Notes under the pieces: generated by a model
Told to the model about the DNA's origin: nothing
Databases searched by the model: none
What the model saw: the letters and a program-made list of their open reading frames with translations, nothing else
Shown: piece after piece, positions 382 to 44,204 of the stretch
Layout of the letters: each line of letters starts with the position of its first letter
Numbering within the stretch: the stretch's first letter is position 1
Translations under genes and position numbers: made by a program
Source of the DNA: Aureococcus anophagefferens
Lineage: Eukaryota > Sar > Pelagophyceae > Pelagomonadales > Pelagomonadaceae
Length of the DNA stretch: 64,000 bases
Assembly: GCF_000186865.1 (NCBI RefSeq)
Contig: NW_008705579.1
Location: forward strand, 135,931-199,930
Reading direction: 5' to 3'

Positions 382-2825
382 CTAGGTCTTAGTCGTCGTC
401 CTCGAGTCGCGCGCGACGACCTCGCCGCGGTTCGTCGCGGCCCAGGTCCGCGCCGTGACGCGGGCGAGCGTCGCGAGGCTCGCGTCGCCGTCGGCGGCGA
501 CGTCGCCGGCGACGAGGCAGCGCGCGAGGTCGAGCTCGCCGCCTTCCGCCGCCTGGGCAGCAAAAGGGTGATTCAACGTCGCTTCAACGTGAGTGTTCCG
601 CGCGCGCGCGTTCCGGGAAAAGCATCCACGCTTCGAGGCCGTTCCGAGAGATGATCGCTCGTCCAAAAATCAGCCAAAACGAGTGGAAAACGGCCGAGAT
701 ATGAGCCTTTGAAGTTGGGAATTTCGCACCCTTTTGCTGCCCTGTCGGCCGCCGCGCAGGCGCCGTCGACGCGGCAGTCCGCCGCGGCGCAGGCGCCGTG
801 GTCGCTCGCGCGGAGCGCGCCCCGGGGCGCGCGGGCGACGTGGACGCCCGCGAGCGTCAGGGTGCCGTGCGCCGTCGCTGTAGCCGCGTGGCCGCCGAAC
901 TTCGCGTGGCCGCCGCAGCCGGCGAGGACGCAGCGCGTCGCGGAGACGGCGCCGCCGCGGCGCGCGTCGAGCGCGGCGCCGGGCGTCTCGGAGATGGCCG
1001 TGTCCTCGAGGACCGCGGACGCCTTGCCGACGGCGAGGAGGCCCGCGCCGCCGCCGCCCGTCAAATCGCACCCCCGGAGCGACAGTCGCGAGCCGTCGGA
1101 CGCGACGACGAGCGCGCGCCGCGCGCCGGCGGCCGCCGAGACGCGGCAGCGCTCGAGGGCGCAGGCCGCGCCGCCCTCGACCTTGACGGCCGAGCCCTGG
1201 CTCGCCACGAGCTCCAGTCCCGCGACCGCGACGTCCGCGCGTCGACCGCGGACGGCGAGCGTGTCCGCGGGGTCCCCGCGCCGCGAGGCGTCGCCGCGGA
1301 GCCGCAGCGTCGCGCCGGCGCCGCCCAGGATCGCGAGGCGCAGGTCCTCGACGACGAAGCGGTCCGCCTCGTGCGAGCCGGACGGGACGACGACGACGTC
1401 GCCGTCCTTGGCGTCCGCGAGGGCCCGCTCGAGCGACGGCGCGGCGGCGAGCCGCGGCGCGCGGGCGTCGTCGTCGCCGCCGCCGCCGTCGCCGTCGCCG
1501 CCGCCGGCCTCGAAGCGCGCGTGGCGGTCGCTCGCGGCGCGCGGCGCGGCGTGTCGCAGCGCGCCGACGACGACGACGCGCTCCGCGGCGAAGGCCGGCA
1601 GCGCCGCCGCGACGGCCGCGCGCACGCCCGCGGCGTCGTCCGGGAGCCGACGCTGCGGGGGCGCGGAGACGCGCCCGTCCGCGGGCGGGAGCCGCGCGGC
1701 GTCGCAGCCGGCGCCGCCGGCGCCGCCGGCGCCGGCCGGCGCCGCGCGCGCCGCGGGCGCCTCGGCGCGCGCGGCCCGCACCCCGTCGGCGAGCGCAGCC
1801 CCGCGGTCCCGCGCGTCGCGGAGGAGCGCGGCCGCGCGGCGCGTCGTCGACCGCGCCGGGTCGAGGCGCGCGGCGACGGCCGCGGCGAACGCTCCGTCGT
1901 AGAGCGCGCCGGCGTAGAGCGGGCCGCACCGGGTCCCGCCCCGCGCGTCGGGCGCGGTGTCCCCGACGGTCCACGCCACGCGCGCCCCGTCGGCGTCGCC
2001 GACGGCGTGCGGGACCGCAGACGCGCCGTCGTCGACGCGGAAGTAGCACCGGCGGAAGAAGTCGACGTTGACGCAGAGCAGCGGCGTCGCCGTCCGCCCC
2101 GCGTCGCGCGCGGCCCGGCAGACGCGGCCCGCCAGGAGCCGCAGCGCGACCTCGCCCGCGGCGCCCTTGCCCAGCGCCTTGCCGGCCTTTTCCGAAAAGG
2201 CGAAACCGCCGTACCTGGCGAAGCACGCGGACCTGCCGTCGCCGCCGCGGTCGCGGGGCCCGGAGCCGACGACGTCCTCCGTCGACGCCACGCAGAGCAA
2301 GCCGCCGCTCCGCACGGACCGCACGCCCGCGTCGACGAAGGGCGCCGCGGACCCGCAGGGGTCGAGGTCGACGGCGTCGAACGAGTCGCGGCGCATGCGC
2401 GCGTTCGCGTCGCCGACCACGGCCGCGTACGCCGCGCCGAGCCCGTTCGCGGCGGCCGTCGCGTTCGCGGCGGCGACGGCGGCCTCGGACGTGTCCGTCG
2501 CCAGGACCGCGCCGACCTCGGCGACCTCGAGCGCGTAGCGGACGCCGCGGACGCCGCCGCCGCACATCGCGTCGAGGACCGTGGCGCCCGTGCGCCCGGC
2601 GAGCGCCGCGCCGAGGGCGGCGACGGTGAGGTCGCGCTGGAGCGTCTGCAGCGGGTTGAAGAAGACGTGCGCCGACGGGCGGAACACGGCCGAGCCCTCG
2701 CGGATCTCCTCCGCCGGCGGCGGCTCGCGGCGCGGCTGCTTCGTCCGGTCACCGCTGCTCGCGCCAGAGCCGAAGGCGTCTTCGAACTTTGCAGACACTT
2801 TCTGCTTCTTCTTCTTGCGCTCCAT
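382..2825 (-). CDS. Trm1-like tRNA (guanine-N2) methyltransferase fused to a C-terminal beta-helix domain; two exons
   Basis: Exon 1 is 2825-753 and exon 2 is 552-382. Both are whole numbers of codons and together encode 747 residues. Residues about 40-330 match the Trm1 family, which dimethylates G26 of tRNA: HVFFNPLQTLQRDLTV, then the SAM-binding VLDAMCGGGVRGVRYA, DLDPCG (usually DLDPYG), LLCVASTEDV, and CVNVDFFRRCYFRV. A low-complexity Ala/Gly/Arg linker (about 340-440) leads into repeats of short strands with regular Gly, Cys and Leu residues (about 465-700). These resemble a right-handed parallel beta-helix, as in FBXO11/pectate-lyase-like proteins. The intron is an introner (553-752) in the beta-helix part; without its removal the frame ends in an element-encoded tail. 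The N-terminus is Lys-rich and could be a nuclear signal. The methyltransferase call is strong. The function of the beta-helix is unknown. Confidence 0.8.
553..744 (-). mobile_element. Introner element copy 1 (192 bp), spliced as an intron of the Trm1-like gene
   Basis: The 192-bp element has imperfect terminal inverted repeats (GGGCAGCAAAAGGGTG inward from both ends). It is flanked by 8-bp repeats that read, in gene sense, GCGGCCGA (745-752) and GCGGCGGA (545-552); they match at 7 of 8 positions and are taken as a slightly diverged target duplication. The predicted intron is 553-752 (200 bp). Its donor is the GC that begins the upstream duplication, and its acceptor is the CAG at the element's end, preceded by a pyrimidine-rich terminal repeat. 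Splicing in phase 0 joins GACA to AAEGGELDL in frame. The interior differs from copy 2 at three positions and from copy 3 at about seventeen. There is no coding capacity for a transposase, so it is non-autonomous. Splicing itself is inferred, not shown. Confidence 0.9.
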
Positions 2826-3270
2826 ATCGCTGGTCTTTCGAGCTATGCGCCTCCATCCATCGCGAAATGCTGGTGCAAGCTGCCTTCAACAATGGCGTCT
2901 GGGACGACGCCGATCGCACCTCCGCGATGAAGGCCGACCTATCCCTCCCCGCGCGGCCAAAATCCCGGAACGAATCCCGCCGCGTGTCGTCGATCCATAG
3001 GGTCGCGAAAACGAATTAGCGCGCCGCGAAGCGCCGCGCTTCGGAGACGGCGCGCCGACGTCGAAGAAGCACGGGCGGCCCCGGGGGAGCGATGCTTTCA
3101 CCGCGGACGCGCGGACGTGGATCCGCGCCGCGGCATCGTCGTCGTCGGCGGCCGCCGCGCGCCGCCGCCGCCGCCGCCGGGGAGCCCCGGCGGGCCGGCG
3201 GCGCGCGCGCGCGCGGCCGTCGATTCCGTCGGCTCGACGCACATATAGCCTGCGCCGCCCTCGCGGGCGC
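2826..3270. other. Intergenic stretch without a recognisable gene
   Basis: These 445 bases lie upstream of the Trm1-like gene (minus strand) and downstream of the RIIa gene's stop. The part next to the Trm1-like start is less GC-rich and probably holds that gene's promoter. The rest is GC-rich, with runs of CGC/GCC triplets at about 3120-3200. Arg- or Ala-rich open frames occur on both strands but look like composition artefacts. I see no RNA gene or repeat. Confidence 0.5.
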
Positions 3271-3565: not shown

Positions 3566-4660
3566 ATGGGCAGCCCCTCCGAGGACGACTCGGATGACGA
3601 GCTCTGGGATCAATTCCACACCTGGGACGACTTCAAGAATATGGGAACCGATGCCGCTCCCCGAACTGTGATGTCCACCATCGAGGAACCCGACGTCGCT
3701 CTCCGAGGAATGAAAGCCGCAGGGATCGCAGGAAAAAACCTGGCCATCATGGCTGGATGGCACCCCCGCATCCGAGGCGTGCGCCATGAGGTAAAATGCC
3801 CCTCGGGCCGGCGCATCGAGTACCAGATGTTCGGCCGCTGCTCCAAGGAGGACCCGGTGGTGCTGATGTTCCCGGGCATGTTCAACGCGAACGCGTCGCG
3901 GGCGCTGGCGCACTGCTGCGGGCGCTACGAGCTGCCCGAAGAACCGGACGGCTTCCCGCAGAGCGCGGCGCTCCTCTTCAATCGCTTAACGGACGGCGAC
4001 GACCCCCGCGCGGAGTTTGACAGCTTACCGCTAACGTTCGCCTGCGTCGCGCGGCCTGGCTACGGCAAGTCCACGCTGGACGTCTTCCCCTGGAATTTTA
4101 CGTACGAGATGTTCGCGGCGGACATGGCCGCCGTCGCGGACTGGTTGGGCGCCCCGCGCTTCGCCGTCATGGGCGCGTCGTCGGGCGGGCCCTGCGCTCT
4201 AGCCGTCGCGCACGCGTTCCCGCGGCGCGTGACGGCGTGCTTGGTGAACTGCGGCGACTCGAACTACCGGCGCGGCTACCCCCGAAACGCGCACTGGTTC
4301 CACGGCGAAGCCACGCCGGCGACGGGCTACCGCGCGGGCATCGAGTGGACCGCGAAGATCTGGCTCGGCGTGACGTGCGGGTATAGGACGCTCACCCCGG
4401 GCTGGGTCGCGGACATGTGGATGGAGGGGCTTCCCGCCGCGTGGCACGACGGCCTCGAGTCCATCGCGTGTCCCGTGTTGTTGTACCACGGCGAGCGGGA
4501 CGCGCTCACGGACCCGAACTGCAGCCGCTACCACGCGGCCCGGCTACGAAACGCGCACCTCCGCGTCGTCCGCGGCGCGGGCCACACGGAGTTCCCCGCG
4601 GCGACCTTCGACGCCATGGTCCTCGACCTCCGCGCGCGGGCTTTGAGTAACGGCGCTTAG
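3566..4660 (+). CDS. Alpha/beta-hydrolase fold protein
   Basis: The 364-residue protein has an acidic N-terminal extension of about 70 residues, then an alpha/beta-hydrolase fold. The nucleophile elbow is GASSGG (about residue 213), the acid is in GERDALT (about 312) and the histidine is in GAGHTEF (about 338). These are in the right order and spacing for a Ser-Asp-His triad. An oxyanion-loop segment, VVLMFPGMF, lies near residue 95. No signal peptide or membrane segment is visible, so a soluble hydrolase is likely. The substrate cannot be assigned. Its TAG stop overlaps the stop codon of the kinase gene on the opposite strand by two bases, so the transcripts of the pair must overlap at their 3' ends. 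Confidence 0.8.
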   Translation: MGSPSEDDSDDELWDQFHTWDDFKNMGTDAAPRTVMSTIEEPDVALRGMKAAGIAGKNLAIMAGWHPRIRGVRHEVKCPSGRRIEYQMFGRCSKEDPVVLMFPGMFNANASRALAHCCGRYELPEEPDGFPQSAALLFNRLTDGDDPRAEFDSLPLTFACVARPGYGKSTLDVFPWNFTYEMFAADMAAVADWLGAPRFAVMGASSGGPCALAVAHAFPRRVTACLVNCGDSNYRRGYPRNAHWFHGEATPATGYRAGIEWTAKIWLGVTCGYRTLTPGWVADMWMEGLPAAWHDGLESIACPVLLYHGERDALTDPNCSRYHAARLRNAHLRVVRGAGHTEFPAATFDAMVLDLRARALSNGA

Positions 4661-6483
4661 CGCCGCGCGCGGGCCTGCGCCTGCATGTCGTAGACCGCGT
4701 CGGCCGCGTCGCCGCAGCCCGCGGCGCAGCAGCCGAAGACGGCGTCGCCGATGGTGTGCTGGCGCGCGCCGCGGTTCGCGGACTCGAAGTCGCCGCGAAA
4801 GATGAGGTTGACCTCGACCTCGTCGGGGATGTCGCGGACCAGCAGGTCCGCGCGCTTCCGGAGCCGCTCCGCCTCGATGACGTCGTGGACGTGGACGCCC
4901 CGGAGGTGCGCGTGGCCCGTGTCCTGGACGTGGTCGTGGCTCACGGACAGCGTGTCGTGGACGTCGTGGAGCTTGTTGTACTCGAGGACCGTGTCGTCCA
5001 TGGCGAACCACGCGCAGTCGAGCGCGGCCGCGGCGGAGAGCCGCCGCGCCGGGTCGCGCCGCAGGAGGCCCGCGATCAACTCCTTGGCCTCGGGCGACGC
5101 GGTGTCCCAGTAGCCCGCGTGGAACTCGACGTCCTGGGCCCGGATGTTCGCGGCCATCTTCTCCTCGTCGCGCGCGGACCACGGCAGGTAGCCCCCGAGC
5201 AGGCAGAAGATGAGCGCGCCGCAGGACCAGCAGTCCGACGCGACGCCGTAGCCCGCGACGTCGTAGAAGTCGCGCGCGTCGTAGACCTCGGGCGCCGCGT
5301 AGCCCGGCGTGCCCGCGAAGTCGTTGAGCGCCGGCCGCTCGTCCGTGAGGATCGCCGCGAGGCCAAAGTCGGCGATCTTGAAGTCGTGGTCGTTGGCGTC
5401 GTCGGCCAGGAGTAAATTCTCCGGCTTGAGGTCGCGGTGGACGACGCCGTGGTCCGACAGAAAGGCCACGGCGTTGAGCAAAACGTAGGCCGCCTTGCGC
5501 GCCTCGTTCTCCGTGTAGTGGTGGTTCGGCTTGCCAACAATTCTATCGAAGAGCTCGCCGCCCTTCATGAGCTGGAGGACGACGAAGCACTGCTCCGGCC
5601 GCACGACGACGTCGTAGCAGTGGATGACCGTGTCGTGGCAGAGGCTCCGCAGGATCTTCGCCTCGTCCGCGAGCATGTCCGCGTCGTCCGGGTCCCGGTT
5701 CGGGTCGTGGCCCGGCTTGTGCGGCGCCTCCTTGACGGCGAAGGTCGCCGACGTCACCCGATTCGTCGCGAGGCGCACGACGGCGAAGCCCCCCTCGCCG
5801 AGCTTCTCGCCGATGTCCAAATCTTCGAAAGTCGTGTAGCCGTGCTTCTCCTTCAAATCCCAGGCGTGGAGCGCGCCCTTGCGGGGCACGGGCGACGACG
5901 CGACGGCGACCTCCTCCTTCTCCGCGGCGTCGTGGACGTGGCGGCCGAAGCCCGACGTGCACCGCTCCTCCAGGGAATTGACCTGATCTAGCGACTGCGC
6001 GAAGTTCACGTGGCAGCGGTAGAGCGTGTTCCGGCCGAGGTCGTTGCTGTCCATCTCGAACCACTTGGCGCCCAACGCCTTGGCCAATTTCGTGCGCCGG
6101 TAGGGGTCCCGGTCGAGGAGCCCGCGCACCAAATCCGTGGCCTCGGGGCTCACCTCCTCCCAGCTCGCGTCCGCGAAGCTCACGGTCTTCGTCCGGAGCT
6201 GCGCCTTGTGCTTCTCCATGTCGCGCGTCGGCCACGGCAGGTAGCCGCCGAGCAGCGCGTAGATGATGGCGCCGCAGGACCAGGCGTCGGCCTCCGCGCC
6301 GTAGCCCGGGTGGTTCGGGTAGTCGCACGCGTCGTAGACTTCGGGCGCGACGTAGCCCGGCGTGCCCGCGTACTCCTTGACGAGCCGCTTGCCCGAAACG
6401 TCGCCCGGCCGCGAAAGGACGACGGCGAGGCCGAAGTCGGCGATCTTGAAGTCGTGGTCGCTGCTGTCGCTCCGCAATAGTAA

Positions 6484-6517
<34 letters not shown>

Positions 6518-7248
6518 TGGGCCGTGAGGTACTCGACGGCGTGGAGGAGCACGTAGGCCGCCTTGCGCGCGCCGGCCTCCGTGTAGTGGTGCGTCGGCTT
6601 GGCGACGATGCGCTCGAAGAGCTCGCCGCCCTCCATGAGCTCGAGGACCATGAGCACCTCCTTGGGGAAGATGGCGATGCCGTAGCAGTGGATCACGGAC
6701 GCGTGGCAGAGCATGTGGAGCACGCGCGCCTCGTCGCAGAGCATGTCCGCGTCGTCCTTGCCCGACGCCGACGTCGGGTCGTGGCCCGGCTTGTGCGGCG
6801 CGGACTTGACCGCGAAGAGCGCGCCCGTCGATCGGTTCGTCGCGACCCTCACGGTCGAGAAGCCGCCGACGCCGAGCTCGCCGCCGAGGTCCAGGTCGTC
6901 GAAGTCCGTGTAGCCGTGGCGCCGGTTGATGTCCGCCTGGGACAGCGGGCCCTTGCCGTCCGCGAGCTTCGACGGCAGCCACTCGGGCGCGAGCTTGCTC
7001 AGCGACTCGCGGACCATGGCCAGGTCGTCGTGGGCCGCCTCCAGCTCCTCCAGGGGCTTTTCCACGCGGCCGTTGCCGCCGGCGGCGTCGCCGTCGCTCA
7101 CGGCGGCGCCGAGCGGCGCGCCGGGGCTCCCGGCCTCGACGCGCGCCTCCGTCGGCGCCGCCGTCGACTTGCCGGCGAAGAGCAACTCGTCGACGCCATG
7201 CTCGTCCGCCAGCGTCTGCAGGAAGGACGACGCGGCCGGCTCCGGCAT
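4657..7248 (-). CDS. Tandem double-domain serine/threonine protein kinase (CaMK-like)
   Basis: The first ATG in the open frame is at 7248 and gives 863 residues. Two complete kinase domains lie at about 119-399 and 478-752. Each has a glycine loop (GELGVGGFSTV; GEKLGEGGFAVV), the VAIK-type lysine in FAVK (K148; K506), HRDLKPEN, DFG, and a GTPGYVAPEV or GTPGYAAPEV activation segment. Each is preceded by a similar HGYTxFxDLDxG lead-in, so the repeat unit is larger than the kinase fold and probably arose by internal duplication. The features fit the CaMK group, but there are no EF hands. A His/Asp-rich tail (about 770-800) and a Cys-containing C-terminus follow. Both domains keep catalytic residues, so both may be active. 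No membrane segment is visible. Confidence 0.9.
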
Positions 7249-7532
7249 GCACCGGGACCGACCGCGATCACGCTGGTGCGACGGCGCGCACGACGACGCA
7301 ACAGGCTGCCGCGACACGAGAAATATGTTGCGAGGGCTGCCCAAACATTGGCTAAATGCGCTCAAGATCAACGCAAACTCGTGCAACAGTTAGTATGCAT
7401 CGTGCAGCCAGTGGTGCCGTCGGCGACTCTGCCACAAGCTCGAGCTAGAGAGCAGCACCACGGCGTCGGCAATCACAACTAGCAACACCCTTAAAAAAAA
7501 CCACACCGCTCGCTCGCACGCTCGAGAACAAC

Positions 7533-12850: not shown

Positions 12851-12966
12851 TGGAGAGAGTTGGTGCCTAGCTAGCAGAGCGGGCAGCCCATGCTAAAAAA
12901 ATTCGAGCTCGCTCTGGTTCAAATGTTCAAGGTGTGGTTCAAGTTTGCGGTTTCAAGCGTCGCAGC

Positions 12967-14235
12967 ATGGCAGCCCACTCGGACACGAAGGAGGCCCGGT
13001 GCTTCGAGTGCCCGTCGAGCCGCGACTACGACAAGGAGGCCGGGTCGCGGCTCGTCGACGCCGTGCGCGGCGACCGCGTCTCCGTGGCCATGAGCCTGCG
13101 CCTCGAGGAGTTCGAGGACGACATCGCCGGGCGGCTCATGGAGAACTGCGAGATCCGCCTCGCCGTGCCGGCGCTCGCGGAGCAGCGGCGGGCCGACGGC
13201 CAGGACTCGGTCTACGTCGGCGAGCCGGGCGTCGCCTTCTACCTCGGCCGCCGCGGCGACGCGGCGACGGCGCGCGCGCTCGTCGACTTCCACACGAGGA
13301 ACGGCGACGCGCCGCCGACGGCGCTGGACTGCAGCCTCCTCTGCGGGGCGACGGGCCTCGACGTCGTCGCCGCGACTTTGGCGCCGGACGACGAGACGTT
13401 CCGCTTCCGCGCGAAGCGCGTGCTCTCTCGCGCGCAGCTCGCGCGCGGCGACAAGCTCGCGGCGGACGAGTGGCTCTACGGCAAGGCGGGCTTCCTGCGG
13501 GCCCTGTTGGGCCTGCGGCGCCTGGCGAAGCGGCGGCGCCTCGCAGCCCTCGAGGACGCGCTCGCCGTCGCGGCGACGCGCGTCGCGGCCGCGCTCCTCG
13601 ACGACGGCCGGTCCGAGCTCGACGAGATTCTGCGCTACTCCTGGCACGGCACGCCCTACGTCGGCGCGGCCCACGGCACGGGCGGCATCTGCTATCTCCT
13701 CCTATGCGCGGCGCGCGACGACGCGCAGCTCGCGGCCAAGGCCTACCCGTACGTCCGCGCGACGCTGAAGGCGCTCGCGGCGCTCGCGGTCGACGGCAAC
13801 TGGCCCGCGGTCGCCGGCGAGGCGCGCGCGCCCCTGGTCCACTTCTGCCACGGCGCGCCGGGCATGGTCTTCGCCTTCTTCGAGGGCGCGAAGGTCTTCA
13901 AGGACGCGGCGCTGAAGACCGCGGCGCTCGACGCGGCCTACACGACGTGGAAGTACGGCCTCCTCTTCAAGGGGCCGGGCCTCTGCCACGGCATCGCGGG
14001 CAACGGCTACGCGCTCCTCGCCGCCTTCCGCGCGACGGGCGACGTCAAGTGGCTCCACCGCGCGTGCGTCTTCGCGGAGACGGGCGTCGCCGAGGACACG
14101 ATCGCGATGAGCCACACGCCGGACCACCCCCTCTCCCTCTTCGAGGGGCTCGCGGGCTGCGCCTGCTTCCTGCGGGACCTGCGCCAGCACCCCAAGGACG
14201 CGGAGCTGCCCTTCTTCGAGTTCCACGGGCTGTAA
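12967..14235 (+). CDS. LanC-like (LANCL) protein
   Basis: The 422-residue protein has the alpha/alpha-barrel repeats of lanthionine cyclase-like proteins. The zinc ligands of the family are present: C294 in HFCHGAPGM and the Cys-His pair C340-H341 in GLCHGIAGNGYALL. The last GxxG-type repeat is SLFEGLAGCACFL. Earlier repeats include YVGEPGVAFYLG, WLYGKAGFLRALLGL and YVGAAHGTGGICYLLL. Eukaryotic LANCL proteins bind glutathione and add it to dehydroamino-acid-containing peptides. The ATG at 12967 is the first in frame. The gene converges on ZPR1 with six bases between the stop codons. There is no signal peptide, so a cytosolic location is likely. Confidence 0.9.
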   Translation: MAAHSDTKEARCFECPSSRDYDKEAGSRLVDAVRGDRVSVAMSLRLEEFEDDIAGRLMENCEIRLAVPALAEQRRADGQDSVYVGEPGVAFYLGRRGDAATARALVDFHTRNGDAPPTALDCSLLCGATGLDVVAATLAPDDETFRFRAKRVLSRAQLARGDKLAADEWLYGKAGFLRALLGLRRLAKRRRLAALEDALAVAATRVAAALLDDGRSELDEILRYSWHGTPYVGAAHGTGGICYLLLCAARDDAQLAAKAYPYVRATLKALAALAVDGNWPAVAGEARAPLVHFCHGAPGMVFAFFEGAKVFKDAALKTAALDAAYTTWKYGLLFKGPGLCHGIAGNGYALLAAFRATGDVKWLHRACVFAETGVAEDTIAMSHTPDHPLSLFEGLAGCACFLRDLRQHPKDAELPFFEFHGL

Positions 14236-20890: not shown

Positions 20891-21780
20891 ATGCTCTACC
20901 CCTTCACGCCAGAAACGGCACCCACGCGCCTGCGCGTGCCCAACGACAACTCGTGCCTCTTCTACGCCGTGGCCTACCTCTGCGACGAGTCGCTCGACGA
21001 GACGGCCGCCACGACGGCCGCCAAGGCGGCGGAGCTGCGCGGCGTCTGCCGCGACGCGGCGGCGGCGGACCCGGACCCCGCGACGCGCGCGCTCATCCTC
21101 GGCCAGTCCGTCGAGGACTACGGGCGCTGGATCATGGTCGACCACAACTGGGGCGGCGAGAGCGAGATCCTGGCGCTCGCCGCGCACTACGGGCGCCGCG
21201 TCGCCGTCGTGAGCGCCGACGCGCTGCTCACGTACGGCGACGCCGGGCCGACGTGCTACCTGCTCTACACGGGGACGCACTACGCAGGGCAGCAAAAGGG
21301 TGATTCAACGTCGCTTCAATGTGAGTGTTCCGCGCGCGCGCGTTCCGAAAAAAGCATCCACGCTTCGAGGCCGTTCCGAGAGATGATCGCTCGTCCAAAA
21401 ATCAGCCAAAACGAGTGGAAAACGGCCGAGATATGAGCCTTTGAAGTTGGGAATTTCGCACCCTTTTGCTGCCCAGGCACTACGACTGCCTCCTCGGCGC
21501 GGGCGGCGCGCGGTCCTTCGACGGCGGCGCGCCGCCCGACTTCGAGGCCGCGTGCAGGGCCGTCGCGGAGGCCGCGCGCGCGAAGGCCGCGAAGCGCGAC
21601 GCGTCGGAGGTCATCTACCGCGTCAGGTGCGGCGGCTGCGGCGCCAAGTTCGTCGACGCCGCGGGCTTCCAGGCGCACTGCGCCGAGGTCGAGCACGACG
21701 ACGACTTCTGCTACGAGTGCGACGACATCTTCGAGGCCGTCTACGACGACGACGACGACGACGACGGCGCGGCGTCATAA
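20891..21780 (+). CDS. OTU-family deubiquitinase (OTU1/YOD1 type) with C-terminal zinc finger; two exons split by an introner
   Basis: Exon 1 is 20891-21276 and exon 2 is 21477-21780, giving 229 residues. The catalytic loop is VPNDNSCLF (D19, C22) and the catalytic histidine is H130 in GTHYD. The HYD codons are restored only when the 200-bp intron is removed. A C2H2 finger (CGGCGAKFVDAAGFQAHCAEVEH) at the C-terminus matches OTU1/YOD1, which trims ubiquitin on ER-associated-degradation clients through Cdc48/p97. An Asp-rich tail ends the protein. The first ATG after an in-frame TAG at 20822 is 20891. That start leaves no UBX-like N-terminal domain, which is shorter than YOD1. Confidence 0.88.
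21285..21476 (-). mobile_element. Introner element copy 2 (192 bp), spliced as an intron of the OTU gene
   Basis: The element is flanked by a perfect 8-bp target duplication, GCACTACG, at 21277-21284 and 21477-21484. Terminal inverted repeats are GGGCAGCAAAAGGGTG and its complement. The predicted intron is 21277-21476 (200 bp, phase 2), with a GC donor from the first duplication and a CAG acceptor at the element end. Removing it rebuilds the catalytic GTHYD motif of the OTU protease, which is strong evidence that it is spliced. The element lies in the opposite orientation relative to its gene from copies 1 and 3. Its interior differs from copy 1 at only three positions, so the two are recent relatives. 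Confidence 0.93.
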
Positions 21781-30818: not shown

Positions 30819-32770
30819 ATGGGCGCGTCGGCGTCGTCCCCGAAGACGGCGCGGCGCAGCCTCTTCTCCCGCGGCGAGAAGAAGCCGCCGAGCCCGGCGC
30901 CCGCGCCGGCCGCGGAGGACAAGGCCGCGGAGGACAAGGGCGACCGGCGCGGCAGTTTCGACTCGTCGATGCCGAGCCCGTCGCTCCAGCCCAAGGTGCC
31001 CGAGTTCGCGAAGCACCACGAGGCCGTCTGCGACCGGAGCCCCGAGTCGCCGCCGCGGAGTTTGTTGATCGAGTCGCGGGAGGAGGCGACGGAGAAGATG
31101 CTGCAGCTGATCCTGTGCGACCGCCACGAGAGCGCGCTCTTCGAGCACTTCCTCCACGGCCAGTACCGCGTCGAGCTCTATTATTTCTTGCGGGCCTGCG
31201 AGGCCTTCGAGGCCTTCGCGGCCAAGTGCATCTCCATGTCCCCCGACGAGAGCCGCAAGGGCGTCATGGGCCAGACGGACAACCACCACGCCCTCGCCAA
31301 GGGCACGGAGGTCTACGAGACCTACCTGACGCCGTCGTCGGACTACTGCGTCCACCCGGCTCCCGCGCACGCGACGATCGTCGCGCAGCGCCTGGACAAC
31401 GGCGCCGTGCCCGTGACCCTGTTCCAGATCCCCAAGGCCGCCGTCGCGCGGACGTTGGCGACGGAGTACCTGGAGCTCTTCGCGGACTGCAGGGCAGGAA
31501 AAGAGAGCGAAATTCCCAATTTCAAAGGTTCCTATCTCGGCCGCTTTCCACTCGTTTCGGCTGATTTTTGGACGAGCGATCATCTCTCGGAACGTTCTCG
31601 AAGCATGGATGCTTTTTCCGGAACGCGCGCGCGCGGAACACTCATGTTGAAGCGAACTTGAATCACTCTTTTCCTGCCCAGGCGGACTGGATCCAGACGG
31701 ACGAGGCGAAGCAGCTCGCGGACCGGCAGCACGCGCTCGGGTCGCCCGACCGGCGCCAGTCCGACGCGACGGACACGACGGCCTTCGACGAGACCTACGC
31801 CATCGACCGCTTCGGGAACCGCGTGCGGCGCAAGGACTCGACGTACTCGGAGACGGGGCCGCGCGACTCGTTCAAGCGCAAGGACTCGCACGACGGCCGG
31901 CGGCGCTCGTCGGCCTTCCGCGAGTCGTTCCAGAATTTCCGCGACTCCTTCAAGTCGACGACGTCGTCCTACTTCGACCCGGGCGACGACGAGCCCGCGA
32001 AGGAGCGCGGCTTCTTCGGGGCCGCGCGCCGGTCCTACATGGCGGGCCGGAGCCAGAGCCGCGAGGCCCAGCCCAACGAGGCCGCCGTCGTCCGCCACAA
32101 CTCGTCCTTCCGCGCCGACGACGGCCCGCTCCCGCCGCGGTCGAACTCGTCCTTCCGCACCGACGACGGCCGGTCGAACTCGTCGTTCCGGTTGGACCCG
32201 GACACGCGGTCCTCGTCGTTCTCGACGGCGCGCCACTCGTCCTACTCCGACTTCTCCTCCCAGTCGCGCGACAGTTTGTACGATTCGTTGGACTCCTGCG
32301 ACCCGGAGCGCTTCGCCGCGGAGTACAACGACGACGGCGCTTCGCCGACGAAGAGCCGCGGGTCCTTCAAGGGGCCGCCGCGCGGCTCCTTCAAGGCCGG
32401 CGACCGCGGCTCCTTCAAGGGGAAACTGCCGCCCATCGCCGACCCGCCGACGTCCGACGCGCGCAACGGCGGCCTCAAGCCCGTCGACATCCCCCGGCGC
32501 GGCAGCCGCGACGGCCGCCGCTTTTCGGACGCGAAGCCAAATTTGGAAGTATTCCTCGAGGCCAAGGAGGACAGCCACGACTCGCCGCGGCCCTCCCGGG
32601 AAGTCATGCCGCGCCGGGCGTCCGCGGAGATGGTCGCGCGGAAGCGGTCCGAGGAGTCCGACGCGAACGCGCCGGACTCGGACTCGCTCCCGTCGCCGCG
32701 CGCGGACCCGAACGCCGAGTCCGACGAGGGCAAGGCGCCGAGCGAGTGCGTCCGCCGGGCGCCGGAGTAA
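30819..32770 (+). CDS. RGS-domain protein with probable N-myristoylation and Ser-rich repeat tail; two exons split by an introner
   Basis: Exon 1 is 30819-31481 and exon 2 is 31682-32770, both whole codons, giving 583 residues. The N-terminus MGASAS fits an N-myristoylation signal. Residues about 97-232 match an RGS domain, which speeds GTP hydrolysis by G-alpha: LFEHFLHGQYRVELYYFLRACEAFE and, across the splice, EYLELFADWIQTDEAKQLA. The C-terminal 350 residues are disordered, with repeated SSFRxDDG (three) and RGSFK-type (three or four) motifs rich in Ser, Arg and Asp, which look like phosphorylation sites. The introner lies in the last RGS helix; failure to splice would truncate the domain. 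The first ATG is used. Confidence 0.88.
31490..31681 (+). mobile_element. Introner element copy 3 (192 bp), diverged subtype, spliced as an intron of the RGS gene
   Basis: The element is flanked by a perfect 8-bp target duplication, GCGGACTG, at 31482-31489 and 31682-31689. The terminal repeats read GGGCAGGAAAAGAG inward from both ends, differing from copies 1 and 2 in matched positions on both sides. The predicted intron is 31482-31681 (200 bp, phase 0) with a GC donor from the duplication and a CAG acceptor. Joining restores ELF|ADWIQTDEA in the RGS domain. It differs from copy 1 at about 17 of 192 positions but has exactly the same length, and it lies in the same orientation relative to its gene as copy 1. 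Confidence 0.92.
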
Positions 32771-35269: not shown

Positions 35270-35409
35270 TGGAGGCGAACTGGCAGCGGCAGTGGGCGGA
35301 GCACGACGCCGCGAATCCGCCGAACGAGAAGTAATCACATAGCATCATGGAGGCGAACTGGCAGCGCCAGTGGGCGGAGCACGACGCCGCGAATCCGCCG
35401 AACGAGAAG
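35270..35409 (+). repeat. Tandem 62-bp duplication of the start of the EH-domain gene
   Basis: A 62-bp sequence covering the first 21 codons of the EH-domain gene occurs twice, at 35270-35331 and 35348-35409, with one base difference (CGG for CGC) and a 78-bp period. In the upstream copy the position of the initiating ATG reads GTG and the copy ends directly in a TAA. It is therefore a non-coding leftover in the 5' leader and the downstream copy is the real start. The near identity indicates a recent event. Confidence 0.9.
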
Positions 35410-36210
35410 GACGGGCAGCAGAGCCTGCTCATCCAGAAGCTCATGCGCCTCGCCGTCGAGGTCTTCGAGCACCGCCGCTACCTGGGCACCGTCGAGGTGT
35501 CCTGGATGTTCGGCATCTACCAGGAGTCGGCGACGATCTGGATCGACGAGGCCGGCGCCGGCGGCGGGCCGGACCCCCTGCTCGACGACACGTCGAACGC
35601 GGCGAAGACGCTCCGTCAGCTCATATCGCGCATGGAGGCGCGCGCGAAGCGCTGGGACGACCCCTTCTTCGCGGAGAAGCCGTCCCGCGACACGCGCCTC
35701 GGCGCGACGGGCACCATCGGCTTCAACATTTTCGGCATCGTGGGGTGGCAGGTGTCCGTGACGTGCTCCATCTACGCGAGCACGCTCCGGCGCTACGCGG
35801 CGTCCCGGAGCCGCTGGCCGCTCGTCGAGTCGCTGGAGCGCTACCGGCCCTTCTTCCTGGCCATCGCGGCGGACGGCTACGTCGACGGCGCCGCGCTGCG
35901 GCGCGCGCTCGAGACCGGCGGCGCGCGGCTGCCGCCGCCGCTGGCCGAGGCGCCGCGCGCGACGCTCCGGGACGCGTGGCACCTCGCGGACCACGACAAC
36001 GACGGCAAGCTCGACCTCGAGGAGTACGTCCTCTTCATCCACCTCGTGACCATGGCGCGCGGCGGCCTGCCCCGCGCGCTGCCCGAGAACCTCGTCCCGC
36101 CGCGCGCGCGCGAGGCCCGGGCGCCGCCGACGCCGCCGCGCGAGCCGCCGACGCCGCCGCCCGCGTCCCCGCCCGCCTCCCCGGCGGACGACATCCAGGT
36201 GGAGATCTAA
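35347..36210 (+). CDS. EH-domain (Eps15 homology) protein
   Basis: The 287-residue protein ends its folded part with an EH domain (about 170-255): paired EF-hand-like helices, the calcium-loop sequence DHDNDGKLDLEEYVLFIHLV, and the conserved close LPRALPENLVPP. EH domains bind NPF tripeptides of endocytic proteins. The N-terminal 160 residues are not recognised; they contain hydrophobic segments (GFNIFGIVGWQVSVTCSIY) that might touch a membrane. A Pro-rich tail (PPTPPREPPTPPPASPP) follows and could bind SH3-type domains. An endocytosis role is inferred from the EH domain. The ATG at 35347 is used because the preceding duplicated copy lacks an ATG and stops. Confidence 0.78.
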   Translation: MEANWQRQWAEHDAANPPNEKDGQQSLLIQKLMRLAVEVFEHRRYLGTVEVSWMFGIYQESATIWIDEAGAGGGPDPLLDDTSNAAKTLRQLISRMEARAKRWDDPFFAEKPSRDTRLGATGTIGFNIFGIVGWQVSVTCSIYASTLRRYAASRSRWPLVESLERYRPFFLAIAADGYVDGAALRRALETGGARLPPPLAEAPRATLRDAWHLADHDNDGKLDLEEYVLFIHLVTMARGGLPRALPENLVPPRAREARAPPTPPREPPTPPPASPPASPADDIQVEI

Positions 36211-38657: not shown

Positions 38658-41600
38658 CTAGCCCGCGCGCCGCCGCTTGCGGGGGTCCGCGGCGCGCCGG
38701 GGGTCCGCGGCCTTCTTCGGCTGCTCCTCGGAGAAGCCGTTGGGCGCGTCGTCCGCGGGCGCGGGCTCGTCCTTGACCACGACGACGGGCTCGTCCTTGA
38801 CGGCCGCGCGGCGCGCGCGCGGGTCCGCGGCGGCCTTGCGCCGCCGCGGGTCGGCCGAGGGCGCGGCCGCCGCCGCCGCCGCCTCGGCCTTGGCCGCGAG
38901 GGCCTTGGCCGCGGCGACCAGCGGCGCGCCCGGCGCGTCGTCCGCGGGCGCCGCGCCGTTTTTCAGCGCGGACTTCGCGGGCCGCGCGTGGCCCAGGCCC
39001 GGCCCCTTCTTCTTCTTCTTGAGCGCGCGGCCGCCCCAGCCGCTGAGGCGGATGGCCTCGTCGGACACGAATTTCGACGCCGCGTCCGCGCCGCGGAGCT
39101 TTTCCAAAGCCGCGCGCAGCGCGGCCAGCGGCCGGTTCGGCGTCGCCGCGGCGGCCAGCGGCAGCGCCGCGTCCTCGCTGTCCCAGTAGAGCGCCTCGGC
39201 CCCGCCGAGCCGCGCGTCGCGCACGCCGCCGACGGCCGCGTGGCGCCCGAGCGCGTGGCGCCGGTCGTGGCCGACGCGCAGCGGCGGCTCGTCGTCGTCG
39301 TGCCACGGCGCGACCGCGAAGCCCGCGGTCGCGTGCCACTGGCGCAGCGTCGCGCCGACGGAGCCGCCGCCCTCGAGCACGGACGAGCTGAAGTCGCGGC
39401 AGCGCTTCGACAGGTCGCCGTCGGCGACGTCCGCGAGCGCGACGTCGTCCGCGTCTTCCGCGTGCGCGTCCTCGTCGAGCGCGGACCCGTCGCGCAAATC
39501 CCGTAAATCGCGCAGCGCCCGCAGCGCCACGCGCGCGTAGTCGCGCGTCGACCCGAAGGCGTCGTCGCCGACGTCGCGGCAGAGACCCTTCCACGCGGCC
39601 GCCTCGGGGTCGTCGTCGTCGGCGGCCGCGTCGTGCAGCCCGTCGAAGAACGCGACGGCCCGCTCTAAAGCTTCAACAGCATCAAAGTCGCCGACGACCT
39701 CGCAGACCTTGCCGTGGCCCACGCGCGCGTCCCAGGCCAGCGACGCGGGGCACCGCGCGACCCACGCCGCGGCGCGGAGCAGCTTCGCCGCGCGCCGGTC
39801 GAGCTCGCGCGCGGCCCTCGACCGGTCCCGGCGCATGGTCTTCTTCAGCGGCGCGACCATGTCGTCCTCCGGCGCCGGCGGCGCCGCCGTGGCGCCCTGC
39901 GCCGCCAGGTTGTCGAGCGCGGCCCGGAGGCCCGCGAGCACGCGCTTCAGGAGCAGGCCGTCCTTGCCGGGCGTCGCGAGCGCGCGCAGCACCTTGGCGC
40001 CGTTGCGCTTCTCCTTGCCCAGCAAGCCCAGACACCGCGCGGCGGCGAAGTGGACGCCGAGGTCGGCCTTGTGGTACTTGGCGAGGATTTTGGCGAGAGC
40101 CCTCGTCGCGGCCGCGAGGAACGTGCCGCTGATCGACGACACGTGGCCCATGGCCCGCCCCTCCGGGGGCGGGAGGCCGCTCAATAAAGCGTCGAGCGCG
40201 GCCTTGGTCTTGCCGTGGTCGTCGCAGGCCGTCCGCTCCTGCATCTCCACGAGCAGCGCCGCGAGCGCGTCGAGCGCGAGCCGTAAGACCTCGGGCTTCG
40301 GCACGGCGAGCGCGTCGAGCAACGCGAAGGGCGCGCCGCAGGCGAAGAGCGCCGTGCGCCCGCCGGGGCCGTGGCACGCCTCGCGCAGCCCGACCAGGAG
40401 CCGCGCCGCGCGCGTCCACGGCGCCACGCCTTCGACGCGGCAGAACGCGGCCGCGCGCCGCAGGTGCGCGTCGTCGCCCGCGCGGTCCATGAGCTCGAGC
40501 GGCTGCTTCGACTTGGCCGCGGCGACGGCGGCCTTCGTTTCTAAGAGCAGGTAGGTCGCGTACGCGGCGCCGCCGCGGGGCCCGGCGTCGACGCACCGCG
40601 ACAGCACGCCGCAGCCGAGCGCCTGCACGTCCGCCGCGCCCGACTCGACGCAGGAGCAGAGCAGGGGCGCCAGGTAGGGCGCCGCGTCCGCGAGGGCGCC
40701 GTCCCAGCGCGCCCGCGCCTCGCGCTCCGCGGCGTCGGCCGCGCGCGCCGCGAGCGCGTGCGCGCCGCGGCGGCCGTCGAGCGCCGCGCGGAGCGCCCAG
40801 TTGCCGGCGGCCCGGGCGGCGCGCGACGCCGTCCTGGGCACGCGGCGGTGTTTCGCGTCCATGATCTCCAGGCCCCGGTCGTCCTCGCCCCCAAAGGGCA
40901 CGGCCGGGAACTCGTCGTCGAATTCGCGGCCGGCGCCGGCGCCGTCCGGCGCGTGCGCCGCGGCGGCGAAGGCGCCCACGGGCGCCGCCGCGGGCACGCA
41001 GGCGTCGAGCGCGGAGACGCCGCCGAGCTTCCGGTCCGGCCGGCCGCAGGAGAAGCGGCCGATCGCCGCGAGGAGCCGCGCGGGCGACCAGCACCGCGCG
41101 GGCGCCGGTTTCGCCTCGTCCATGAAGTCCGACGCCTTGCGCCGCTTCTTCGACGGGGGCTTCGCAGCGACGACGACCTCGTCGCCGTCGCCGGCCTGGC
41201 GCGGCGACCAGTACGTGAGCAGGTCGAGCGCGGCGCGCCGGAGCGCGCGGCCCGCGACGGCGAGGCGCGTCTTCGCCGCGTCGCCGCTGTGGCGCGACCG
41301 CCGCACCGCCGCGTCGAAGTCGTCGTCGTCGCACTCGAGCGGCGGCTTGGCCTCGCCGACGTCCGGGCCGAAGGAGCCGTCGACGGCGTTGACGACGCGG
41401 AGGAGGCACGCGAGCGCCTTCGCCTCGTCGCGCCAGTCCGCCGTCGTCCGCCGGACGACCTTCAGCAGCTCGTCGAGGAGCCCCGCGGCGGCGCAGGCCG
41501 ACTCGAGGGCGCGGAGCAGCGCCGCGAGCGCCGACTCCGTGTCGACGGGCGCGCCGCCCGGGTACGCGGCGTCCTTGGCCGCGTCGTCGACGTCGTCGTC

Positions 41601-43967
41601 GTCGTCGTCGAGGACGTCGCAGCGCCGCGCGAGGCACGCGACCTTGGCCAGGGCGTCCTCGCTCCGGCCCGACGCGGCGAGCTGGCGCGGCAGGTCGCCG
41701 CGCAGGCGGTCGAGGCGGTCCGCGGCCTCGTCGAGCACGCGGAAGAGGCCCCCGGCGTCGTCGGGCGACAGGAGGCGCCGGTCGAGGCTCCGGGCGCGCA
41801 GCGCCGCGGCGCGGGAACCGCCGCGCCGCAGCTCGTCCCGCAGCCGCCGGAGCGCCACGGTCGCCACGGCGTGGGCCTCGCGCGGCGCCGCGGGCTCGCC
41901 GTCCTCGACGAGCCGCCGCTCCGCGTCGCCCAGGCCGCCCGCGCGCGACGCGCCCCACTTCGCCGCCTCGGCCTCGCCGACGTCGACGGCCACGGCCGCC
42001 GCCGCGCCCGCGCAGGCGCGCGGGAGCGCGTCGTCGTCGTTGTCGCCGTCGTCGAGCGGCCCGCCGGCCGCCGTCGCGCGCAGCAGCACGACGAGCCGGC
42101 TCTTCGCGTCCTCGCGCGCGAGCGACGACGCGGCGCGCTGCGCGCCGATCATGAGCACGGCGGCCTCGGAGCCGGCGCCGTCGCCCGCGACGGCGCCGTG
42201 GATCGCCGCGCGGTGGGACGCTAAACCGCGGAGCGCGGCCGCGCACGGCGACGGCGACGCGTGCGCCAACTCCGCGAGGAGCGCGAGCGCGTGCTGCGCG
42301 GCGCCGCCCTCGCCGCCCGCCGCCGCGACGGCGACGAGGCGCGCGACGCAGCCGGGCGTCTCGCCGAGCGCGCGCCGCGCCGCGTCGCCCGCGGAAACGT
42401 CGCCGAACTCGACGACGCGACGCGCCGCGAGCAGCACGTCGTCCAGGCTCGGCGCGCCCGGCACGTCGTCCTCCGGCGCCGTCGCGAGGCTCCGAGCGAG
42501 CGCGAAGGCCCCGGCGTCCAGGCGCACGGCCGTCGCCAGGCCCCCGTCGTCGCACAAGTCGCCGAACGACCGCGACGACTTCGGACATAGAGCCCAGAGC
42601 GCGCCGCCGCCCTCCAGGCCCCGCAGCGTCGCCACGACCTTGCGCAGGGCGCCATCGAGGGGCCGCGTCGCCGCGGCGGCGTCGAGGCGCCCCGCGGCGT
42701 CGCCGTCGCGCGCCGCGGCGCGCGCGGCCGCCGCCGCGCCGGCCAAAGCGGCCGCGGACGCCGCGAGGCGCTCCGCGAGCGCCGCGTCCAGGCACCGCGG
42801 GTCCAGCGCCGCGCCGCCGCCGATGAGCGCCGCGACGGCGTCCAAATCCCGCGCGCCGTCCCGCAGGCGCAGCCAGGACCGCGGCGCTTCCAGAGCGCCG
42901 CGCGCGGACGCGCGGAGCCGCGTTAACCCGTCGACGAGCGCGAGGCGCCGCGCGGCGTCCCCGAGGCTCGCGCGGAGCGCCGCCGACGGCCGCGGCTTCT
43001 CCATGACGAGCCGCGTGACCAACGCCGCGTAGCAGGTCGCGGCGACGGTCTTCGCCGCGGACGGCGACGCCGCGGCGAGCGCGGCGACGGCCGCGGCGGC
43101 CGCCTCGGCGCGCTTCGGCGACGCCGCGGCGTCCCCCAGGATCGCGCCGGCGACGCCCGCCACGGTGCCGACGAGCGCGTCGGCGAGGACCGTCGGGTCC
43201 GCGCTGCGCCCGAGCGCCGCGGCCGCGAGGCGGCAGCCCGCGGCGGCGTCCGCCGGCGCGCCCTCGACGGCCCGCGCGACCGCGGCGACGACGGCGTCCC
43301 AGGGCACGCGCGCGTCCGCCGGTGCGGCCTCCAAAGCATCCAAAGCGCCGGCCGGCGCGCCGGCGCAGGCCGTGATGAGGTCCACGTCGCCGTCGCCGTC
43401 GCCGTCGTCGCCCGAAAGGTCCGGCGCGGCCAGAGCGTCGTCGCCCGCGCGGTCCAGCAGCGCCGCGCTGAGCTCGTGCTCGTCGACGCCCGCGCCGGAC
43501 TCGTCGTAGAGCGACGCCGGCGGATTGCGCAGCTCCGCCGCCGAGGAGCCGCGGGCCTGCGGCGCCTCCTCGACGGCCGCGGCCTCGGGCCTTTCGCCGT
43601 AGACGGCCAGACACGCCTTGGCGTACGTGCCCCGGATGGCCACGCGGTCGGCGACGACGTCGCTCGGCAGGCCCGGCGCGGCGCCGACCACGTAGGTCGC
43701 GCCGCCCTGCACGACGCACCGCGGCGACAGCGCGGCCCACCGGAACGACCCGGACTCCTCGACGCCGTAGAAGACCTCGATCTCGAACTCGCGCGCCTGC
43801 GTCGCGGCGGCGGCGCCGTGCGCGCTCGCGCCGCAGGGCAGCACGCTGAACTTGAGGATGCGGAACTTCTCCTTCCACGCGATCTCGTCCTCCGCGGGGC
43901 GGCCGAAGTGGCCCACGCTCAGCAGGCGCATGCTCGGCGCCGGCGGCTTCTGGTCCCAGCCGCTCAT
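38658..43967 (-). CDS. Virilizer-like (VIRMA) subunit of the m6A mRNA methyltransferase complex
   Basis: The 1769-residue protein is the largest in the window and has no intron. The first 130 residues fit the Virilizer N-terminal domain: MRLLSVGHFGRP, FRILKFSVLPCGASAHG (in place of INEVRVIPPGVRAH), REFEIEVFYG, and VAIRGTYAKACLAVYGERPE (in place of LVLRGWYNCLTLAIYG). The remainder is almost wholly alpha-helical, Ala-rich, with many ARM/HEAT-like units, as in VIRMA, which scaffolds METTL3-METTL14, WTAP and HAKAI. The last 100 residues are basic with repeated DPRRR-type motifs and a probable nuclear signal. Size and arrangement match the family. Sequence similarity outside the N-terminus is low. 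The ATG at 43967 is the first in frame. Confidence 0.7.
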   Translation of the reverse strand: MSGWDQKPPAPSMRLLSVGHFGRPAEDEIAWKEKFRILKFSVLPCGASAHGAAAATQAREFEIEVFYGVEESGSFRWAALSPRCVVQGGATYVVGAAPGLPSDVVADRVAIRGTYAKACLAVYGERPEAAAVEEAPQARGSSAAELRNPPASLYDESGAGVDEHELSAALLDRAGDDALAAPDLSGDDGDGDGDVDLITACAGAPAGALDALEAAPADARVPWDAVVAAVARAVEGAPADAAAGCRLAAAALGRSADPTVLADALVGTVAGVAGAILGDAAASPKRAEAAAAAVAALAAASPSAAKTVAATCYAALVTRLVMEKPRPSAALRASLGDAARRLALVDGLTRLRASARGALEAPRSWLRLRDGARDLDAVAALIGGGAALDPRCLDAALAERLAASAAALAGAAAAARAAARDGDAAGRLDAAAATRPLDGALRKVVATLRGLEGGGALWALCPKSSRSFGDLCDDGGLATAVRLDAGAFALARSLATAPEDDVPGAPSLDDVLLAARRVVEFGDVSAGDAARRALGETPGCVARLVAVAAAGGEGGAAQHALALLAELAHASPSPCAAALRGLASHRAAIHGAVAGDGAGSEAAVLMIGAQRAASSLAREDAKSRLVVLLRATAAGGPLDDGDNDDDALPRACAGAAAAVAVDVGEAEAAKWGASRAGGLGDAERRLVEDGEPAAPREAHAVATVALRRLRDELRRGGSRAAALRARSLDRRLLSPDDAGGLFRVLDEAADRLDRLRGDLPRQLAASGRSEDALAKVACLARRCDVLDDDDDDVDDAAKDAAYPGGAPVDTESALAALLRALESACAAAGLLDELLKVVRRTTADWRDEAKALACLLRVVNAVDGSFGPDVGEAKPPLECDDDDFDAAVRRSRHSGDAAKTRLAVAGRALRRAALDLLTYWSPRQAGDGDEVVVAAKPPSKKRRKASDFMDEAKPAPARCWSPARLLAAIGRFSCGRPDRKLGGVSALDACVPAAAPVGAFAAAAHAPDGAGAGREFDDEFPAVPFGGEDDRGLEIMDAKHRRVPRTASRAARAAGNWALRAALDGRRGAHALAARAADAAEREARARWDGALADAAPYLAPLLCSCVESGAADVQALGCGVLSRCVDAGPRGGAAYATYLLLETKAAVAAAKSKQPLELMDRAGDDAHLRRAAAFCRVEGVAPWTRAARLLVGLREACHGPGGRTALFACGAPFALLDALAVPKPEVLRLALDALAALLVEMQERTACDDHGKTKAALDALLSGLPPPEGRAMGHVSSISGTFLAAATRALAKILAKYHKADLGVHFAAARCLGLLGKEKRNGAKVLRALATPGKDGLLLKRVLAGLRAALDNLAAQGATAAPPAPEDDMVAPLKKTMRRDRSRAARELDRRAAKLLRAAAWVARCPASLAWDARVGHGKVCEVVGDFDAVEALERAVAFFDGLHDAAADDDDPEAAAWKGLCRDVGDDAFGSTRDYARVALRALRDLRDLRDGSALDEDAHAEDADDVALADVADGDLSKRCRDFSSSVLEGGGSVGATLRQWHATAGFAVAPWHDDDEPPLRVGHDRRHALGRHAAVGGVRDARLGGAEALYWDSEDAALPLAAAATPNRPLAALRAALEKLRGADAASKFVSDEAIRLSGWGGRALKKKKKGPGLGHARPAKSALKNGAAPADDAPGAPLVAAAKALAAKAEAAAAAAAPSADPRRRKAAADPRARRAAVKDEPVVVVKDEPAPADDAPNGFSEEQPKKAADPRRAADPRKRRRAG

Positions 43968-44204
43968 CGCTGCAACTCGGTGTTATATAATGTGTTGTTG
44001 CGCGGCGGCGCTCGCACGCCGAGGTTGCGCGGTCGCTCGCGCGCGCGCGGCGTGTTGTTGGCGCGCGCCGCGAGCTGCCTCGAGTTGTCGGCGGCGCCGG
44101 CGATTCAGCCGCCGGGGATCGCGACCGAGGCCTCTCGAGACCGAGGACGCCCTCGGAGGACTCCACGCAGCCCCACCCCGGAACCAACGCGAAATAGCCG
44201 CCAA

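What the first reader, a model, noticed from the sequence alone, without database searches (positions are those of the whole stretch)
21277..21484. Introner family: three 192-bp transposon-like elements, each making an intron in a different gene
Copies at 553-744, 21285-21476 and 31490-31681 are all exactly 192 bp with terminal inverted repeats. They are flanked by 8-bp duplications (GCGGCCGA/GCGGCGGA, GCACTACG twice, GCGGACTG twice). Removing one duplication plus the element (200 bp) restores the frame in all three genes, including the catalytic GTHYD of an OTU protease and the last helix of an RGS domain. The donor is the GC at the start of the target duplication and the acceptor is the CAG at the element end. 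This is the published introner mechanism (one splice site from the element, one from duplicated gene sequence), seen here three times in 64 kb.
Basis: partly seen in the sequence, partly recalled or inferred. Interest (0 to 1): 0.93.

Follow-up and report, generated by a model that had tools for sequence, protein, structure and literature searches.

The report
Mobile DNA that becomes introns
Three similar 192-base mobile DNA pieces sit inside three algal genes, each placed so that it and one copy of the target it duplicated could be spliced out exactly; they belong to a family of over a thousand such pieces in this genome, and the intron-making mechanism is already published.

Summary
The genome holds 1,135 copies with exact CAGGGCAG...CTGCCCAG ends, plus roughly 200-250 with another left second base. 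Of 85 sampled copies with enough flank, 81 lie in coding sequence on the predicted strand with frame restored; swapped flanks agree in 33.8%. Donors are GC or GT in 111 of 113. This is an introner family of TIR-transposon type. The host is a pelagophyte, probably Aureococcus anophagefferens, where such introners are published, so the finding is essentially known. Splicing was not observed. One detail may be new: both ends read CAG in gene sense whichever way the interior lies; the right-end A is nearly fixed, the left-end A is not, and the symmetric CAG...CTG form gave 0 matches. A one-base change in either repeat may have turned an ordinary MITE into an introner.

The parts
553..744 (-). introner copy 1, interior in R orientation relative to its gene
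745..752 (-). target duplication of copy 1, donor side in gene sense (GCGGCCGA)
545..552 (-). target duplication of copy 1, exon side in gene sense (GCGGCGGA, one mismatch)
553..752 (-). predicted 200-bp GC-AG intron, phase 0, in a beta-helix-like gene (about 382-2885, minus strand; gene limits worked out by hand from the open frames)
21277..21284 (+). target duplication of copy 2, donor side (GCACTACG)
21285..21476 (+). introner copy 2, interior in F orientation
21477..21484 (+). target duplication of copy 2, exon side (GCACTACG)
21277..21476 (+). predicted 200-bp GC-AG intron, phase 2, in an OTU-like cysteine protease gene (about 20891-21780; limits worked out by hand)
31482..31489 (+). target duplication of copy 3, donor side (GCGGACTG)
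31490..31681 (+). introner copy 3, interior in R orientation
31682..31689 (+). target duplication of copy 3, exon side (GCGGACTG)
31482..31681 (+). predicted 200-bp GC-AG intron, phase 0, in an RGS-domain gene (about 30819-32770; limits worked out by hand)

Best explanation
These are copies of a non-autonomous, cut-and-paste-type DNA transposon (a MITE) that makes a spliceosomal intron where it lands in sense in a gene. It inserts with an 8-bp target duplication. The element's right end supplies a pyrimidine-rich tract and the acceptor CAG; the first duplication supplies the donor when it starts with GT or GC. Shown here: anatomy, copy number, and, in the sample, coding location, strand, frame restoration, donor enrichment and right-end conservation. 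Inferred: removal by the spliceosome, mobilisation by a transposase encoded elsewhere, and loss of unspliceable insertions by selection.
For: 8-bp duplications (two exact, one with a mismatch) around copies 90-97% identical in three unrelated genes. 1,135 exact-ended copies genome-wide, control 2. Coding strand agrees with the CAG...CAG strand upstream in 84 of 85 copies and downstream in 83 of 85; 81 of 85 restore frame, against 2,192 of 6,480 mismatched flank pairs. Among those 81 the duplication starts GT 34 (9.8-fold over the flanking coding sequence), GC 46 (3.6-fold), GA 1 (0.19), GG 0. The far end of the duplication shows no matching mirror signal (position 8: C 45, G 39, T 16, A 13 of 113), so the signal is directional, as splicing predicts. 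With left A, a right base other than A gives 6 rows of odd lengths against 9 in the control, whereas a left base other than A with right CAG gives 272 rows against 25 in the control. The OTU protein's closest homologue (98%) and nine further relatives are ungapped at the junction. Phases 34/21/26 follow GT/GC availability, 35/16/30 expected.
Against: No RNA evidence was available. Whether P0001 comes from DNA or RNA is not known, so it shows an intronless allele or a spliced transcript without saying which. The RGS protein gave no homologues, and the beta-helix junction was not compared with homologues. No transposase was found with three Pfam models, two of which rang in no control genome. 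4 of 85 copies did not pass the frame test: three have a negative coding score on one side, and one (L053) has an upstream flank that scores clearly, but best on the other strand. The sample is not random and its copies were oriented by their CAG...CAG ends.
Confidence: 0.93

Rival explanations
1. The elements are removed from the DNA by programmed excision, like internal eliminated sequences of ciliates, and not from RNA.
For: Precise removal of element plus one repeat would restore frame equally well.
Against: DNA excision has no reason to depend on gene strand or on GT/GC at the duplication; here 84 of 85 (upstream) and 83 of 85 (downstream) copies follow the gene strand and donors are GT/GC in 111 of 113.
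Confidence: 0.03
2. The introns spread as RNA, by reverse splicing and reverse transcription, and not as a DNA transposon.
For: Copies are near-identical introns in different places.
Against: 8-bp duplications flank the element, the ends are inverted repeats, and the interior occurs in both orientations relative to the gene (70 R and 43 F among 113); reverse splicing of an RNA gives one orientation and no duplication.
Confidence: 0.02
3. These are old, ordinary introns that have been homogenised, not recent gains.
For: Introns in many genes could in principle be converted to one sequence.
Against: Duplications are exact in 103 of 118 parsed rows (the parse allowed at most 2 mismatches), left-A interiors differ from the majority sequence by about 4%, and OTU relatives read across the junction.
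Confidence: 0.02
4. For the left-end base: T is avoided because it would pair with the acceptor A in the stem formed by the inverted repeats and hide the splice site.
For: Left base 2 is A in 1,135 copies and T in only about 7-8; the repeats form a stem in the predicted RNA of all three window copies.
Against: A-to-T changes are also rare elsewhere in the element (8 of 173 changes at A/T sites), so T is not significantly depleted at base 2 (8 of an estimated 233 deviants, p 0.53).
Confidence: 0.1

Closest known systems
Introner elements of Aureococcus anophagefferens (Huff, Zilberman and Roy 2016; paper not held; known here from recall and citing papers)
   Same: Pelagophyte host, intron about 200 bp, TIRs, 8-bp duplications (the 8 bp recalled), one splice site from the element and one from the duplicated target (recalled). 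Citing papers say: characteristic length around 210 bp (PMC9481584, passages); direct repeats and TIRs of constant length (PMC7789003, passages).
   Different: Identity of sequence could not be compared. PMC7789003 calls the splicing motifs of these introners canonical, while also noting raised non-canonical introns in the species; here GC donors outnumber GT (65 to 46 of 113). I do not know whether the base-2 asymmetry of the ends was described.
Introners carrying the 3' splice site and borrowing the 5' site from the duplication, e.g. Symbiodinium microadriaticum (Gozashti et al. 2022, PMC9860276, section 7 read, other passages)
   Same: Same division of labour between element and duplication; TIRs present.
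   Different: 4-bp duplications there, 8-bp here; no sequence relation tested. That paper reports GC donors from 0 to 50.0% per family; here 57.5% of 113 sampled copies, a non-random sample.
Aureococcus sp. TARA MAG introner family 4 (PMC9860276, Fig. 2F legend and methods passage)
   Same: Same genus if the host identification is right, and 8-bp duplication.
   Different: That family carries both splice sites and adds 12 bp to the transcript; this one would leave the transcript unchanged.
hAT MITEs
   Same: 8-bp duplication and a CAGGG left end (hAT traits recalled, from no call).
   Different: The other end reads CTGGG; no hAT domain was found, though the control was silent.

Membership tests
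Introner (intron-generating transposable element) | Many near-identical copies as introns of unrelated genes | tested here: met
   1,135 exact-ended copies, control 2; three different genes in the window
Introner (intron-generating transposable element) | Sense orientation in coding sequence with frame restored by removal | tested here: met
   81 of 85 testable copies; mismatched-flank control 33.8%
Introner (intron-generating transposable element) | Transposon marks: target duplication and terminal inverted repeats | tested here: met
   103 of 118 parsed rows have exact 8-bp duplications; 18-bp TIR with base-2 mismatch. The parse required at most 2 mismatches in the duplication
Introner (intron-generating transposable element) | Splice sites placed so that element and target duplication supply one each | tested here: met
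   GT or GC at duplication start in 111 of 113. The 113 were kept on condition of right end CAG; the scarcity of other right ends was tested apart, for left A only
Introner (intron-generating transposable element) | Splicing observed in RNA | not testable with these tools
   No transcript reads; protein P0001 is only indirect
Aureococcus anophagefferens introner elements | Host is A. anophagefferens | tested here: inconclusive
   Genome 49.05 Mb and window GC 71.4% fit strain CCMP1851 (49.9 Mb, 70.5%, PMC11237714); nearest named phytoene synthases among the 120 listed of 4,972 are pelagophytes at 73-74%
Aureococcus anophagefferens introner elements | Sequence matches the published consensus | not testable with these tools
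   Paper not held
hAT transposon superfamily | 8-bp target duplication | tested here: met
hAT transposon superfamily | CAGGG-type sequence at both 5' ends (recalled) | tested here: not met
   One end CAGGG, the other CTGGG; form with both CAGGG: 0 rows at spacer 162-192
hAT transposon superfamily | Cognate hAT transposase in the genome | tested here: inconclusive
   0 matches to PF05699 and PF14372, but neither rang in any control genome

The most novel reading that the evidence does not exclude
An ordinary MITE with symmetric CAGGGCAG...CTGCCCTG ends became an introner by a single T-to-A change at base 2 of one inverted repeat, which makes the acceptor CAG. Because the repeats also supply the pyrimidine tract, the same change at the opposite end made a second introner lineage that reads the interior from the other strand. 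The parental form is gone (0 matches) because it cannot be spliced out of genes, and rare copies symmetric the other way (CTG...CAG, about 7-8) can serve both strands and bridge the two lineages. If so, the step from transposon to intron factory is one base and happened at least twice in one family.
Probability: 0.35. Interest if true: 0.6.

Novelty: already known. Interest (0 to 1): 0.35.

Why it matters
How genomes gain introns in bulk is a long-standing question, and introners are a leading answer. This family lets the published mechanism be tested base by base inside one genome: the splice-relevant end is nearly fixed while its mirror image varies, and the donor dinucleotide shows graded enrichment (GT over GC over GA and GG). 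If the one-base-switch reading is right, it says how little is needed to turn a transposon into an intron maker.

Tried and rejected
Re-made ends at each insertion: considered because ends read CAG...CAG in gene sense whichever way the interior lies. Not needed: F and R share one interior consensus and nearest neighbours of the opposite class are 17% against 48% shuffled, so each class mostly breeds true. In-situ inversion between the repeats: possible, not excluded. One origin of F: not rejected (p-AU 0.107), although the tree needs 12 changes and supported branches force 4 (9 changes on 63 copies), so several switches or recombination remain open.

T avoidance at left base 2 to keep the acceptor out of a stem: not supported (p 0.53).

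Left base 2 as a purely neutral site: not supported either. About 17% of exact-ended copies deviate there, against 2.3% (173 of 7,440) at interior A/T sites chosen for at least 85% consensus. Sub-lineages with another left base may have spread; not followed.

Left-end deviants as older copies: no clear result. 12 deviants whose first 80 letters one search printed, against 83 left-A copies, gave p 0.30; 12 against 101 gave p 0.062. In both, the left-A set is partly biased towards relatives of copy 2.

Autonomous partner: three Pfam transposase models gave nothing. In the first 100 listed places of each of two end patterns (of 1,169 and 1,437 places) I saw, comparing by eye, no pair of CAGGG ends enclosing a longer element; one converging pair of CTGGG ends 2.1 kb apart was seen and not read.

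Relatives elsewhere: a 25-base interior motif had no exact match in viral contigs or in the prokaryote genome collection, where records very near this genome may be left out. The RGS protein had no homologue at E 0.001. No Rfam or tRNA hit in the window.

Full report
The three elements are real and exactly where stated. Each is 192 bp, flanked by 8-bp duplications (one pair with a mismatch), and the terminal inverted repeat is about 18 bp with a mismatch at base 2. The copies lie in three different genes: a beta-helix-like gene on the minus strand, an OTU-like cysteine protease and an RGS-domain gene. Removing element plus one duplication joins the frame at phase 0, 2 and 0.

The window is part of a 49.05-Mb genome in 86 contigs. 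A first look found 2,043 candidates for copy 2, of which the tool scored 40. With exact eight-base ends and a spacer of 162-192 there are 578 + 557 = 1,135 copies reading CAGGGCAG...CTGCCCAG, against 2 in the reversed-pattern control. Left second base other than A with right CAG gives 272 rows, control 25. Of these, 28 are 14 T-left places seen on both strands (control 12); about half of the 14 are shifted readings in which the duplication happens to end in CTGGG. The other 244 rows are G or C; to judge by match length, roughly a tenth of the first 100 listed rows are shifted readings. Left A with a right base other than A gives 6 rows of odd lengths, control 9; copies with neither end A were not searched for. 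The symmetric CAGGGCAG...CTGCCCTG form gives 0 rows, control 4.

From 105 stretches of DNA (104 loci and one cut from the window), 118 rows were parsed; the parse allowed at most two mismatches in the duplication, and seven loci gave no row. Dropping four wrong-strand readings of symmetric copies and one reading without right CAG left 113 copies. The sample is not random: 30 loci are the nearest relatives of copy 2, 60 are in genome order and 14 were fetched for a T at left base 2. Donors at the duplication start are GC 65, GT 46, GA 2.

A codon model trained on the window was used to ask, for each copy with 240 bp of flank on both sides, which strand and frame are coding. Of 85 copies, the coding strand equals the CAG...CAG strand upstream in 84 and downstream in 83; 82 are sense on both sides, and in 81 of these 82 the frame agrees after removing element plus one duplication. 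With clear signal on both sides (65 copies), 64 are sense on both sides and 64 of those 64 agree. Pairing upstream and downstream flanks of different copies gives agreement in 2,192 of 6,480. Of the four that fail, three have a negative coding score on one side; the fourth, L053, has an upstream flank that scores clearly but best on the other strand, although its joined flanks score best in sense.

Relative to the surrounding coding sequence, duplications starting GT are enriched 9.8-fold and GC 3.6-fold; GA is at 0.19 and GG at 0 (81 copies). Positions 7 and 8 show no matching mirror signal. So the bias is directional and gene-oriented, which fits loss of unspliceable insertions better than a palindromic target choice; a directional target preference is not excluded. 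Intron phases 34/21/26 follow GT/GC availability in codons, 35/16/30 expected.

For the OTU gene, the search gave 44 proteins, of which 14 were aligned. P0001 (98% identical, 55 member sequences, contig of 1,515 bp) and P0002-P0010 have no gap at the junction; P0001 and eight of the nine read GTHYD and P0009 reads GTHDA. The more distant P0018 and P0034 also run through (TGQHYD). P0033 and P0037 leave the family before the junction and look chimeric. This supports the exon boundary. It does not tell whether P0001 is an intronless allele or a transcript.

The interior lies in both orientations relative to the gene: 70 R and 43 F among 113, and 36 R and 25 F among the copies taken from the genome-order loci. 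Yet in the copies with A at both ends they read CAG...CAG in gene sense in both. F and R have the same interior consensus apart from two repeat positions (176 and 178) and base 2 at each end. Nearest neighbours of the opposite class are 17% against 48% shuffled, and no opposite pair differs by fewer than two core bases. A single origin of F is not rejected (p-AU 0.107), though the tree needs 12 changes and supported branches force 4. The simplest account is a symmetric ancestor with one base change at base 2 of either repeat; the change that makes CAG at the right end is the one splicing needs. Whether the ancestor was CAG...CTG or CTG...CAG is not shown; I favour the first because each step then has a reason and because CAGGG resembles hAT ends (recalled). 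Against a simple picture, the left base deviates in about 17% of exact-ended copies, several times more than interior A/T sites, which I do not explain.

Predicted RNA of all three window copies pairs the inverted repeats into a stem; z-scores against shuffles are -2.6, -2.3 and -1.7 for copies 2, 3 and 1. A stem that hides the acceptor would explain rarity of T at left base 2, but T is as rare as expected from the element's own substitution pattern.

I call it a pelagophyte, probably A. anophagefferens. Introners are published there by Huff et al. 2016, which I could not read; passages in PMC9481584 and PMC7789003 cite it. Section 7 of PMC9860276 describes the same splice-site arrangement in other species. 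I saw no title or abstract on the base-2 asymmetry in the listings, but the key paper is not in that library, so this says little.

Verdict: observation confirmed, interpretation supported, novelty low. The quantified end asymmetry and the one-base-switch hypothesis are the parts worth following.

Noticed in passing
4660-7389 (minus strand): Two kinase stretches in one 910-residue frame, matching direct repeats 76-77% identical spaced about 1.05-1.07 kb between 5129 and 6918.
   Followed up: partly
35270-35409: A 78-bp-spaced direct repeat, 62 nt at 98% identity, overlapping the start of an open frame with coding score at 35335-36210.
   Followed up: no
38661-43982 (minus strand): Open frame of 1,774 residues with strong coding score and no Pfam match at 1e-4.
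   Followed up: no
G000 contig C1, 3410698-3410804: A left and a right introner end 107 bp apart, perhaps an internally deleted copy.
   Followed up: no
G000 contig C1, 2465147-2467258: Two right-type (CTGGG) ends facing each other 2.1 kb apart: two copies with altered left ends, or a longer element; not read.
   Followed up: no
12871-14232 (plus strand): LanC-like protein in an algal genome (Pfam LANC_like E 2.1e-48).
   Followed up: no
proteins P0033 and P0037: Database proteins that begin like the OTU protein and then turn into unrelated sequence, probably chimeric contigs.
   Followed up: partly
whole family: GC donors outnumber GT (65 to 46 of 113), above the 50.0% maximum that PMC9860276 gives per family; the genome's U1 RNA was not examined.
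   Followed up: partly
whole family, left base 2: The left second base deviates from A in about 17% of exact-ended copies, far more than interior A/T sites (2.3%); unexplained.
   Followed up: partly
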